The position numbers were made by a program, and so were the translations under genes. Positions 8,594 to 11,761 of a stretch of 64,000 nucleotides of DNA are shown piece after piece. The stretch is from Alkalihalobacillus sp. FSL W8-0930 (GTDB lineage Bacteria; Bacillota; Bacilli; Bacillales; Bacillaceae_D): the NCBI GenBank assembly GCA_037965595.1, contig CP150183.1, positions 3,658,001 to 3,722,000 on the forward strand, read 5' to 3'. Within the stretch, counting starts at the first letter, position 1. Every line of letters starts with the position of its first letter. The notes under the pieces are model-generated. The model saw nothing but the letters and a program-made list of their open reading frames with translations. It was not told the DNA's origin and made no database searches.

Positions 8594-9148
8594 ATGAAAT
8601 CTCAAAAAGAAAAAATGCTTGCTGGAGAAATGTATGACCCCTCTGATGCAGAGCTACAACAAGAACACCAACAAGCGCGTGAGCTAACTCATCAATTTAA
8701 CGCAGAAACCAATCAAACGGTGCGGACGACTCTTTTAAAAAGACTGTTTGGAAGCACTGGTGAAAGCATCCATGTAGAAGGGAATTTCCAATGTGATTAT
8801 GGATCTAACATATATGTAGGAGATCATTTCTTTGCGAACTTTGACTGCGTATTCTTAGACGTCTGCCCCATTACAATTGGAGATCACTGTATGCTTGCAC
8901 CAGGAGTTCATATCTATACAGCGACTCACCCTCTTGATCCTATCGAGAGAGCAAGTGGATTAGAATACGGGAAGCCTGTGACCATTGGCCATAACGTGTG
9001 GATTGGTGGAAGGGCCATCATTAATCCAGGTGTCCACATTGGCGACAATGCGGTCATTGCCTCAGGAGCTGTTGTGACAAAGGATGTACCAGAGCGTGCC
9101 GTTGTTGGTGGAAATCCCGCGCGTATTCTTAAAATGATTGAAGAGTAA
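8594..9148 (+). CDS. maa: Maltose/galactoside-type sugar O-acetyltransferase
   Basis: A 184-residue left-handed beta-helix acetyltransferase. The N-terminal helical MAC domain ([20 protein letters not shown]) is followed by hexapeptide repeats. The catalytic His sits in YTATHPLDP, and the C-terminal NPARILKMI ending is typical of Maa/LacA. It transfers acetyl from acetyl-CoA to a sugar hydroxyl. AAGGAG is 6 bases before the chosen ATG; a longer in-frame reading from 8537 has no ribosome binding site. Monocistronic, with a terminator directly downstream. The exact acceptor sugar is uncertain. Confidence 0.88.
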
Positions 9149-9166
9149 AGGTCAGATGATGATAAG

Positions 9167-9205
9167 AAAGATCTCCCTCACTTGAGAAAAGAGGAGATCT
9201 TTTTT
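9167..9205 (+). terminator. Terminator of the acetyltransferase gene
   Basis: AAAGATCTCC pairs with GGAGATCTTT and is followed by T6. A strong intrinsic terminator. Confidence 0.9.
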
Positions 9206-9220
9206 CATGCCGATCTGAAC

Positions 9221-9478
9221 TTCTCCAAGAAAAACTCCGCATCAAGCAAGCAGTTTGTTCGTTGTACCAAGCTGAGCGGAGCGTTACCAAGAGGATTGTA
9301 GATTCTATTAAGCTCAGAGAAACTTTTAATAAGAAGTAAGCCTCGATAGCAAGATGATCGCACACGTTACCAAGCTCACCCATCCGGTACCAAGATCGAC
9401 TGCCACTACACAAAGAACATCCTTCAATTTATCAAGCTCCTTGCGCTACTTACCAAGATGTAACAACAGTCTCTAAGC
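9221..9478. repeat. Degenerate array with 20-21 bp period, TACCAAG-type core
   Basis: The gap between the acetyltransferase terminator and the fucosidase stop codon holds no gene but is periodic. On the plus strand AAG occurs at 9227, 9248, 9269, 9289, 9310, 9331, 9351, 9372, 9392, 9413, 9434 and 9455, with a further weak copy at 9475. Every step is 20 or 21 bp, mean 20.7. The best units share TTACCAAG or TACCAAG followed by CTC or ATG (9265, 9285, 9368, 9388, 9451); others keep only part of the core. A period that is not a multiple of three argues against coding and equals about two DNA helical turns. I do not recognise a named repeat family. Confidence 0.8.
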
Positions 9479-11761
9479 CTTACTCAATTGGTAGGTCTCA
9501 CCTTTCACCGATTTAAACTGGTACACATTTTCTCCCGCTTCGGTCGTTTCAACTTTTTCGCCACCCAATGTAACGACTAGAGGTGAGGCGCTTCTTATCA
9601 CACACTGACCACCCAGAAGACTTTGAATGTCCCCTTGAATAAACTGACCATGCTCCCACTGTAAGCTGAGTTCAAATCCTCCTCTTGCTTTTATTCCTCT
9701 GACGGATCCCTTAGACCATTCAGAAGGTAGTGCTGGAAATAAGTGAATGGTTTCGTTATGGCTTTGGAGGAGCATCTCTGCTATTGCCGCTGTGCCTCCA
9801 AAGTTCCCATCTATCTGAAATGGAGGGTGGTTATCAAATAAGTTTGGCAACGTAGACTGTGTTAACAAAGCGAGAAAATGTTCATACGCACGCTCTGATT
9901 GTCCGAGACGAGCCCACATATTAATAATCCACGCTCTGCTCCAACCTGTATGTCCTCCTCCGTGCTTCAACCTGCCTTCAAGTGTCTTAATGGCTGCGTC
10001 TGCCAGCTCTGGTGTTTGCTGTGGAGTGATTTGACTCCCAGGATGCAAGGCAAACAAGTGAGAGATGTGTCTGTGTCCTGGTTCTGCCTCAGCGTAATCC
10101 TCTAGCCATTCTTGAACCTGGCCATTCCCTCCAATCGTTGTTTCAGGTAAACGACTTTGTAGGCTACGTAGTTCCTCAGCAAATACTTGATCCATTTCAA
10201 GAATTTCTGTTGCACGAATACAATGAGAGAAAAGCGCATGTACGATTTGATTGTCCATGGCAGGACCAACACAAAGAGTGCCAGACTCACCATTTGGAAG
10301 GAGATAACGATTTTCCGGTGATACTGAAGGAGCCGTAACAAGCCTTCCTTGCTCGTCTTCAACTAGAAAGTCAACAAAAAACAACGCAGATTCCTTCATG
10401 GTTTCATATGCTTTCTTGAGAAACGTCACATCACCTGTAAACGAATAATGCTCCCACAGATGTAAACAAAGCCAGGCTGCTCCGAGCGTCCAGTTTGTTG
10501 CTGGCATATACAAGTCCTGAGGTGCTGTATCTGCCCATATATCTGTATTATGGTGAGCAACAAAGCCTCTGCATCCATACATGGATTGAGCCGTCTCCCT
10601 GCCTGTCTCTCTCATTCGTTCAATTAAATCAAATAGCGGAAGATGGCAGTCTGAGAGATTACATGTTTCTGCAGGCCAATAATTCATTTGGGTATTAATA
10701 TTGATCGTGAATTTACTATCCCATGGCGGCAGCATCTCTGCATTCCAGATTCCTTGAAGGTTGGCTGGTAAGGAACCAGGGCGACTCGAAGACATGAGCA
10801 AGTACCTGCCATAATGAAAATAAAGATTCATTAACCCGAGATCCTGCCCTCCCTCTTGTACACGTTGAAGCCTTTGATCTGTCGGTAGATTTGTCAGGCT
10901 CGGGTCATCCTCTAGTTCAAGCTCCATTTTTTCATACAGCGTTTGATAGTCTTTCAGGTGGTCATCTAGCAGCTGCTCGTAAGTCTTTTGAGACAATTGG
11001 TTTAGCAGGTTTTCACACCATTGCTCGGGTTGCGGGTGCCTAAAGGTTGTAGCTGCCACCAGAATGAGCGTAAGTGAATCGACGTTCTCAACAATTAACC
11101 GATTCCCAATCGTTTGCACATGGCCCCCTTCTGGGATAGCCTTCACCTTCGTATAAAAAGAAATCCCGTCTTTCCCGCCAGTCACACCTGACATACTAAT
11201 TGAATCGTCCTTTTTGGCCCTTGATTCGTCTACGCTTGTTGCGTCCATGCGATCCAGCATCGCTTTTAATGATATGGCGTTCGGCTTAGATGCTGTTAAC
11301 CTCATAACCAGAGACTGGTCAGGGTAACTGGCTATCAGTTCTCTTTTATAGGTTATTTCATTGCAAGTATACGTTGTAATAACCGCTCCTCTTTTTAAAT
11401 CAAGCTCTCGTTTATAATGATTAAAATCGGATCCTTCATGCGAAAATTGTAGGAGTAAATCACCCAAAGGTTCGTAATGCCGTTGCCTAAATGGAACACC
11501 GGTTAACGCTACGTCTGCAAGCTCCTCGGCTTCCTTTAATCTTCCACTAAATAAAAGTTCTCGCACCTTAGGTAAGTTCTCTAGGGCGTCAGGATTGTTA
11601 CGGTTTCGTTTTCCACCGTACCAGACAGAATCTTCATTTAAATAGATTTTTTCCTTTGTGATCTCTCCGAGGACCATACCACCTAATACTCCATTACCTA
11701 CAGGCAGTGCTTCATTCCAATTCTTTGCGGGCTGTTCGTACCATAATGTATGCCTATTCAT
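9473..11761 (-). CDS. Alpha-L-fucosidase-type glycoside hydrolase, GH95
   Basis: A 762-residue protein of GH95 length and architecture: N-terminal beta-sandwich (HTLWYEQPAKNWNEALPVGN, LNEDSVWYGG), linker, (alpha/alpha)6 barrel with NMQ-type motif TQMNYWPAETCNLSDCH and HHNTDIWADTAP, then a C-terminal beta domain. The Asn pair in the HHNTD region and the acidic residue in QIDGNFGGTAAIAEML match positions used by GH95 inverting alpha-1,2-L-fucosidases. GH95 also contains alpha-galactosidases, so the sugar is not certain. There is no signal peptide, so it acts on imported oligosaccharides. AGGAGGAG precedes the ATG. A cre-like site lies upstream, and an FAH-family hydrolase gene diverges. Confidence 0.87.
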   Translation of the reverse strand: MNRHTLWYEQPAKNWNEALPVGNGVLGGMVLGEITKEKIYLNEDSVWYGGKRNRNNPDALENLPKVRELLFSGRLKEAEELADVALTGVPFRQRHYEPLGDLLLQFSHEGSDFNHYKRELDLKRGAVITTYTCNEITYKRELIASYPDQSLVMRLTASKPNAISLKAMLDRMDATSVDESRAKKDDSISMSGVTGGKDGISFYTKVKAIPEGGHVQTIGNRLIVENVDSLTLILVAATTFRHPQPEQWCENLLNQLSQKTYEQLLDDHLKDYQTLYEKMELELEDDPSLTNLPTDQRLQRVQEGGQDLGLMNLYFHYGRYLLMSSSRPGSLPANLQGIWNAEMLPPWDSKFTININTQMNYWPAETCNLSDCHLPLFDLIERMRETGRETAQSMYGCRGFVAHHNTDIWADTAPQDLYMPATNWTLGAAWLCLHLWEHYSFTGDVTFLKKAYETMKESALFFVDFLVEDEQGRLVTAPSVSPENRYLLPNGESGTLCVGPAMDNQIVHALFSHCIRATEILEMDQVFAEELRSLQSRLPETTIGGNGQVQEWLEDYAEAEPGHRHISHLFALHPGSQITPQQTPELADAAIKTLEGRLKHGGGHTGWSRAWIINMWARLGQSERAYEHFLALLTQSTLPNLFDNHPPFQIDGNFGGTAAIAEMLLQSHNETIHLFPALPSEWSKGSVRGIKARGGFELSLQWEHGQFIQGDIQSLLGGQCVIRSASPLVVTLGGEKVETTEAGENVYQFKSVKGETYQLSKA

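What the first reader, a model, noticed from the sequence alone, without database searches (positions are those of the whole stretch)
9221..9478. Intergenic array with a strict 20-21 bp rhythm (TACCAAG core), 12-13 degenerate units
AAG recurs on the plus strand at 9227, 9248, 9269, 9289, 9310, 9331, 9351, 9372, 9392, 9413, 9434, 9455 (and 9475), every interval 20 or 21 bp, mean 20.7. Surrounding bases often read TTACCAAGCTC or TACCAAGATG. The rest of each unit is unrelated, so only a phased core is kept. The period is not a multiple of three and is close to two B-DNA turns, suggesting one protein face reading an array, or a repeated RNA motif. It fills exactly the space between a terminator and a stop codon.
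Basis: seen in the sequence. Interest (0 to 1): 0.75.

Follow-up and report, generated by a model that had tools for sequence, protein, structure and literature searches.

The report
Helix-phased CAAG arrays at gene ends
Dozens of places in this bacterium's chromosome, mostly just past the ends of genes and of several ribosomal RNA operons, carry ladders of a tiny DNA signal spaced two turns of the double helix apart, which points to an undescribed protein-binding structure that related bacteria share in varied forms.

Summary
The window array has 12 phased AAG-core units (a 13th AAG lies in the next gene); its chain of 13 compares with at most 4 in 200 shuffles. It is one of 36 array loci found in this genome, 33 after joining IS-split ones. 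The four other same-genus genomes searched have 39-55 matches each. Arrays with other 5' halves but a CAAG core occur in other Bacillales, with mean steps of 20.1-21.0 bp. Between two species, 19 of 20 array stretches are syntenic, and AAG is 96% conserved against 71% for other unit positions: the phased core is under selection. No conserved RNA fold is predicted. Arrays tend to lie past transcription-unit ends on the sense strand of the upstream gene (44 of 58), including straight after four rRNA operons. All four close copies of one insertion sequence sit in arrays, at nearly one position of the unit. Best reading: a ladder of sites on one face of DNA for a cooperatively assembling or DNA-wrapping protein, acting as a boundary past terminators. 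Phasing, conservation and placement are shown; protein and function are inferred.

The parts
8594..9148 (+). upstream gene, maltose-acetyltransferase family (Mac cap + hexapeptide repeats), on the AAG strand
   Evidence: Pfam; ORF
9168..9203 (+). probable intrinsic terminator of the upstream gene (bulged stem, about 11-nt loop, T run)
   Evidence: seen by eye; not listed by the simple scan
9218..9467 (+). 12-unit phased module; AAG at 9227, 9248, 9269, 9289, 9310, 9331, 9351, 9372, 9392, 9413, 9434, 9455; steps 21,21,20,21,21,20,21,20,21,21,21 (type A)
9475..9477 (+). 13th in-phase AAG, inside the convergent gene's last codons; probably not part of the module
9473..11761 (-). downstream convergent gene, glycoside hydrolase family 95
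   Evidence: Pfam

Best explanation
A conserved ladder of short asymmetric sites (TANCAAGAA) kept on one face of the DNA: 12 sites per module here, about 20.7 bp apart, fitting a helical repeat of about 10.25-10.4 bp per turn (shown). The inferred mechanism: a protein that assembles cooperatively along the DNA, or a ring or solenoid that DNA wraps around, contacts one site every two turns. The resulting directional nucleoprotein block sits past the ends of transcription units and acts as a boundary, stopping read-through and/or holding the supercoils that pile up past strongly transcribed units such as rRNA operons. Shown: phasing, conservation of the core against the rest of the unit, the bias in placement and orientation, IS targeting. 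Inferred: the protein, its assembly, the boundary function.
For: Selection on the core: in ten orthologous pairs AAG is kept at 439 of 456 positions vs 1918 of 2704 other unit positions, p 7e-40; A at -3 95%, C at -1 81%. Phase lock without an interval limit: 423 of 430 intervals of <=30 bp are 18-22 bp in 25 loci; best periods 20.25-21.0; R at best period >=0.97 in 22 of 25, over runs of 7 to 43 sites (short runs give high R easily). A search that allowed 10-40 bp spacing still led to 18-21 bp arrays in five of six outlier genomes looked at. Of five helical repeats tried, signatures A, B, C fit best at 10.35, 10.4 and 10.25 (10.25 was the lowest tried). No consensus RNA structure. AAG strand = sense strand of the upstream gene 44 of 58, of the downstream gene 26 of 59, p 6e-4. 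Arrays start 86-87 bp past 4 of 9 5S rRNA genes and follow tRNAs at 2 loci. All 4 close IS copies lie in arrays, 4-bp duplications at offsets 4-8 from AAG.
Against: No reader protein identified; RemA-like copy number does not track arrays. In 11 of 33 arrays of this genome the upstream gene is on the opposite strand. In 16 of 26 arrays of other genomes an ORF of 100 codons or more overlaps the array and was passed over without a coding test. A same-strand terminator was detected upstream in only 12 of 36. Arrays are patchy in the order (17 of 348 genomes with model R1). Some relatives step by exactly 20 or 21 bp, which needs no helical explanation. The boundary role rests on position only.
Confidence: 0.45

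Rival explanations
1. Gyrase or other topoisomerase capture sites: phased DNA that wraps well and relieves positive supercoils past transcription units, a Bacillales counterpart of BIME-2/REP.
For: Placement past rRNA operons and between 3' ends. In E. coli gyrase cuts are enriched past rRNA operons and in BIME-2, and well-phased DNA binds gyrase better (PMC6379681, passages read).
Against: [quoted passage not shown] Gyrase is universal (recalled), arrays are patchy and cores differ by genus. By eye the unit shows no clear one-turn AT/GC alternation. A repeat below 10.5 bp per turn suits left-handed rather than gyrase's positive wrapping (inference).
Confidence: 0.15
2. RNA-level element: read-through or 3' UTR RNA, poor in U and unstructured, is bound at CAAGAA by an oligomeric RNA-binding protein (TRAP-like logic, recalled) for termination or stability.
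For: Sense orientation to the upstream gene; in most arrays examined the AAG strand is poor in T, with no fold beyond shuffles in 9 of 11.
Against: Where a terminator was found, and at the four rrn arrays, the array begins after it, so most transcripts would lack it; flexible RNA linkers do not explain phase kept over up to 43 sites.
Confidence: 0.15
3. Selfish or neutral satellite DNA that spreads by duplication and is tolerated at gene ends.
For: Module number varies between species; higher-order tandem copies in relatives; an insertion sequence lands there.
Against: Core-only conservation at orthologous loci, shared interval signatures although unit bodies differ, positional conservation of 19 of 20 stretches.
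Confidence: 0.13
4. The reader is RemA, the octameric regulator with a LytTR-related fold that is proposed to wrap DNA.
For: RemA binds repetitive, poorly conserved DNA and is proposed to wrap it round its ring (PMC8481266, abstract and passages); a RemA-like match is in 57 of 60 genomes.
Against: Reported protection is of 7-bp regions with 3-bp gaps, i.e. every 10 bp, upstream of promoters; copy number is the same with or without arrays (two matches in 55 of 60).
Confidence: 0.08
5. Small protein gene or CRISPR-like guide array.
For: Some type-B modules begin AAGGA-ATG with an open frame of about 60-100 codons; third codon positions differ a little more (27 of 90 vs 19 and 17).
Against: The 20/21-bp steps break any frame; the G000 copy compared has a stop after 61 codons. 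Across the window array the longest ORF on the AAG strand is 40 codons. No phage or plasmid match to the whole array (too coarse for 12-bp spacers); no Rfam hit.
Confidence: 0.03

Closest known systems
REP / BIME elements of enterobacteria
   Same: Dispersed, intergenic, gene 3' ends and convergent regions, targets of IS elements including IS3 family (PMC1525189, passages), proposed link to supercoiling
   Different: REPs are palindromic units; here the unit is a short asymmetric direct repeat in helical phase, only a core is kept and no fold is predicted
TAACTGA direct-repeat arrays of Beggiatoaceae, Cyanobacteria and Bacteroidetes (PMC4679880, abstract and passages)
   Same: Abundant, mostly intergenic direct-repeat arrays of unknown function, patchy across lineages
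   Different: Contiguous 7-nt repeats, most of them just upstream of start codons; no helical phasing
Iteron arrays / ParR-centromere repeats (recalled)
   Same: Direct repeats about two helical turns apart, read by oligomeric proteins on one face
   Different: Those are single loci next to their replication or partition genes; these are tens of chromosomal loci, with no linked reader found
RemA binding regions
   Same: Poorly conserved repeats, proposed to be wrapped round a ring protein
   Different: About 10-bp repeat, upstream of promoters
bcr repeats of the B. cereus group (recalled)
   Same: Dispersed Bacillus intergenic repeats
   Different: Not described as helix-phased ladders, as far as recalled

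Membership tests
REP/BIME | palindromic unit able to form a hairpin | tested here: not met
   RNAalifold predicts 0 pairs on 15 modules; single folds near shuffles in 9 of 11 items (exceptions L056, L080). A palindromic linker lies between or before some modules
REP/BIME | high copy, intergenic, gene 3' ends | tested here: met
   36 loci; bias to 3' ends, not a rule
REP/BIME | specific IS target | tested here: met
   4 of 4 close copies; a 69% relative is elsewhere
REP/BIME | bound by gyrase/IHF/Pol I | not testable with these tools
   needs Topo-seq or ChIP
CRISPR array | near-identical repeats separating unique spacers | tested here: not met
   only a short core is kept
CRISPR array | spacers from foreign DNA, cas genes | tested here: inconclusive
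   no match of the whole array in phages or plasmids, but 12-bp stretches are too short to trace; the two neighbours in the window are Mac and GH95, others not named
Tandem repeat / VNTR | whole unit conserved head to tail | tested here: not met
   TRF lists nothing at 9221-9478; unit bodies differ. Some relatives do have near-exact tandem arrays
Structured RNA family | conserved secondary structure or Rfam match | tested here: not met
Iteron / centromere array | linked Rep or ParR gene at a replicon origin | tested here: inconclusive
   tens of chromosomal loci speak against it; most neighbouring genes were not named
RemA target | binding by RemA | not testable with these tools
   copy number uninformative

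The most novel reading that the evidence does not exclude
A new class of bacterial genome element: 'helical ruler' arrays, ladders of one short oriented site repeated at two turns of DNA (mean 20.1-20.9 bp, by mixing 18-22 bp steps) in chains of up to 55 units, placed mainly past transcription-unit ends in several Bacillales families and read by an unknown protein that coats or wraps the DNA: a dedicated transcription/topology boundary whose core changes from genus to genus along with its reader.
Probability: 0.4. Interest if true: 0.9.

Novelty: new variant of a known kind. Interest (0 to 1): 0.78.

Why it matters
If right, Bacillales genomes hold an unnoticed layer of chromosome organisation: direct-repeat ladders in helical phase at gene ends and behind rRNA operons. 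They would give a natural in vivo ruler of DNA twist, a handle on an unknown DNA-coating or wrapping protein, and a Gram-positive counterpart to the BIME/REP story. A standard tandem-repeat finder missed the window array because only the core is kept, so such arrays may be more widespread than any list shows.

Tried and rejected
RNA fold: RNAalifold on 15 modules gives 0 pairs. In single folds of 11 items, both strands, against 20 shuffles each, 19 of 22 z lie between -1.1 and 1.5; exceptions are L056 forward -2.4 and L080 -2.9/-3.4, an AT-rich array of another family.

Coding: some type-B modules have an RBS-like AAGGA and an ATG inside the palindrome, but the one pair tested shows a stop in one species and weak codon-position bias. 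The 94-aa minus-strand ORF 9129-9413 has no Pfam match. Long ORFs overlapping arrays of other genera were not tested.

RemA paralogue as an array-specific reader: two matches per genome in 55 of 60 genomes, arrays or not; that the second, weaker one is YaaB/RemB is recalled.

Chi (AGCGG, recalled for B. subtilis): 16 on the AAG strand of 15 modules vs 2.5 in shuffles, 3 on the other strand. Modules share ancestry; left as a note.

Dropped rows: one of 37 loci (3336568-3336828, a tandem repeat of another sequence). In one search, 6 of 41 pattern hits looked at gave no chain (four of them Sporosarcina, two outside Bacillales), and several outside Bacillales look like 21-bp, possibly coding repeats; I do not claim them. 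In some searches ORFs overlapping arrays were passed over. In some searches the window array's start was set too early (9148) by the chain finder, so its own terminator is not among the 12.

Literature: searches, 75 of an open-access library; in the listings I saw no description of these arrays. Subscription papers are not covered. The RemA footprint paper is not held.

Full report
CHECKING THE OBSERVATION. All 13 AAG positions are right. A chain of 13 AAG at 20/21-bp steps compares with at most 4 in 200 dinucleotide shuffles of the 64-kb window, and with 5 for the next best of 64 trinucleotides and 29 step pairs. With a weight matrix written by hand from the arrays, the window array scores 67 against a maximum of 12 in 10 Markov-resampled windows.

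A FAMILY, NOT A SINGLE ARRAY. A DNA search of the window's own genome (3,885,014 bp, one contig; window at 3,658,001) found a second array at 3,320,245 with the identical interval string 21,21,20,21,21,20,21,20,21,21,21; 156 of 266 columns are identical, 120 of 230 outside the shared AAGs. Searching with that copy gave 13 matches at E<=1. Fifteen 12-place modules were extracted with five preset interval strings: A as above, B with a 22 in place 5, C 21,20,21,21,21,20,20,20,21,21,21, and one-step variants of A and B. Twelve of the 15 have AAG in all 12 places, the others 11, 11 and 9. Over 177 units only the core TANCAAGAA stands out. A sequence-only model of the 15 modules (R1) finds 62 matches at E<=0.1 in the genome, 48 of them at E<=2e-9; 150 of 769 candidates were scored, and the training modules match by construction. 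Chains in the fetched loci give 36 array loci after one exclusion, 33 after joining IS-split arrays. Some modules are preceded by a conserved palindromic linker, TAAGGAATAAAAATGNNCATTTTTAT or close to it; the window copy lacks it.

RELATIVES. In 60 genomes (own included) R1 matches in 10: the five of this genus (36, 39, 40, 55, 44 matches, under stricter filters) and five others with 1-9. In 348 genomes of the order, 17 match at E<=1e-4, in 9 of 127 genera, with only 6 candidates scored per genome. Relatives have their own 5' halves but keep CAAG: ATATCAAGAAA, GTAGCAAGAGCG, TCGCAAGAATA, TTATTCAAGAA, GTCGCAAGAAG.

THE PERIOD. These searches favour 20-21 bp, so I measured intervals without a limit, using each array's own core in 25 loci picked from them: of 430 intervals of 30 bp or less, 423 are 18-22 bp (21: 329, 20: 73, 19: 18, 18: 2, 22: 1). 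Best periods are 20.25-21.0; for example 43 sites of L233 fit 20.65 with R 0.99 but 21 with R 0.14. I then searched 397 genomes for three CAAGAA with any spacing of 10-40 bp; 356 have a match. By eye most counts are like those of the reversed-pattern control, but some stand out: G038 192 vs 1, G083 142 vs 4, G114 110 vs 2, where overlapping triples of one array count many times. I looked at 30 loci (five each) of six chosen genomes. Spacing is 18-21 bp or its double in five (G038, G083, G114, G222, G353), 21 mixed with 29 bp in G337, and L290 and L294 are background. Against a purely helical reading: G222 is a 20-bp tandem, and arrays of G069, G109, G262 and G332 and G042 step by 21 almost throughout. 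Of five helical repeats tried, signatures A, B and C fit best at 10.35, 10.4 and 10.25 bp per turn, the last being the lowest tried.

SELECTION ON THE CORE. Twenty stretches cover the G001 matches that one search listed. Nineteen lie at the locus of a G000 array with the same relative orientation (two of them flank one array across a contig break); in one (L262) the G000 locus has no array. Module numbers differ (e.g. 12 vs 26 units at L024/L251). In ten aligned orthologous pairs, AAG positions are identical in 439 of 456 and other unit positions in 1918 of 2704 (p 7e-40); A at -3 is 95% and C at -1 81% identical. Units were chosen on the G001 sequence and gapped columns left out, which favours AAG somewhat but is unlikely to make this gap. 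Flanking stretches are about 77-97% identical, so unit bodies drift at least as fast as their surroundings while the core is held.

PLACE AND DIRECTION. dnaA is at base 4. AAG lies on the leading strand in 28 of 36 loci (p 0.0012; 25 of 33 after merging near neighbours, p 0.0046), and loci crowd towards the origin (median 0.24 of an arm, KS p 4e-8). In this genome the upstream gene is on the AAG strand in 22 of 33 and the downstream gene in 13 of 33 (p 0.048). In arrays of other genomes it is 22 of 25 and 13 of 26 (counted; p 0.006); several of these share a genome, one is from a Bacteroidota, and in 16 of 26 an overlapping ORF of 100 codons or more was passed over. In the 10 without such an ORF and with both neighbours, upstream is same-strand in 10 and downstream in 5. 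Pooled: 44 of 58 vs 26 of 59 (p 6e-4). Genes were called by a simple ORF rule. Same-strand terminators lie within 150 bp upstream in 12 of 36, and opposite-strand terminators face in from downstream in 11; the two control positions give 2 and 8. The genome has nine 5S genes. Arrays begin 86-87 bp past four of them, after the rrn terminator; of the other five, three run on into tRNAs, one has a terminator then a tRNA, and one orphan 5S itself lies past an array. Two arrays follow tRNAs.

IS TARGETING. An insertion sequence with HTH_Tnp_1 and rve ORFs (IS3-family label recalled) has four copies at 93% identity or more; all four are inside arrays, and a 69% relative at 3,387,621 is not. Each has a 4-bp duplication at offsets 4-8 from the first A of AAG; with one copy removed, the step across the empty site is 21, 21, 21 and 20 bp. 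The IS lies on the AAG strand in three and opposite in one. G001 lacks the insertions at L263 and L266. IS elements that target REP sequences are known (PMC1525189, passages).

WHAT IT IS NOT. No Rfam match in the window, no consensus structure, single folds mostly near shuffles, no phage or plasmid match, no reading frame over the window array on the AAG strand beyond 40 codons, no TRF entry.

MECHANISM. Shown: a short asymmetric site, kept by selection, repeated on one face of the helix, 12 to a module here and in chains of up to 55 elsewhere (52 with AAG), with a bias to transcription-unit ends in the sense direction. Inferred: a protein that assembles along DNA or is wrapped by it, one contact per two turns. 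A pitch slightly below 10.5 bp per turn fits left-handed wrapping better than gyrase's positive wrap; this is inference. The likely role is a directional boundary past terminators, for read-through or supercoiling. RemA (PMC8481266, passages) and gyrase (PMC6379681, passages) are the named candidates; neither is favoured by what could be tested.

NOVELTY. The general kind, dispersed intergenic repeats that may bind proteins, is known. Helix-phased, core-only, oriented ladders with a module of 12 and changed cores in other genera did not appear in the listings of nine searches of an open library, which does not cover subscription journals.

Noticed in passing
L207:2280-3660 (G000:C1:318779-320159) and three more copies: Insertion sequence (IS3-like) whose four close copies all lie in arrays, with 4-bp duplications 4-8 bp after the start of AAG
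   Followed up: yes
L003, L010, L022, L058, L072 and others: Palindromic linker TAAGGAATAAAAATGNNCATTTTTAT between or before modules, with variable centre; some copies include an RBS-like ATG
   Followed up: partly
L020:1568-1828 and neighbouring sequence (G000:C1 near 3336600): Near-exact 20-bp tandem repeats of an unrelated unit (AATCAACAAAGAGAGGAAAG) next to GA-rich 20-bp tandems
   Followed up: no
15 modules of G000: AGCGG (recalled as the B. subtilis Chi) is enriched on the AAG strand: 16 vs 2.5 expected, 3 on the other strand; modules share ancestry
   Followed up: partly
L054:1931-2046: An orphan 5S rRNA gene just downstream of an array that itself follows an rRNA operon
   Followed up: no
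L081 (Thiomargarita MAG): Array alternating 21/20 bp with a different, alternately inverted-looking unit
   Followed up: no
array strands in L029, L042, L056 and others: The AAG strand is poor in T, and in several arrays goes from G-rich at the 5' end to C-rich at the 3' end
   Followed up: partly
L154, L233, L235 and 13 more: ORFs of 100-390 codons overlap arrays of other genera, often on the strand opposite CAAG; coding not tested
   Followed up: no
G000:C1:3656336-3656575: Another array lies about 1.4 kb before the window's first base
   Followed up: yes
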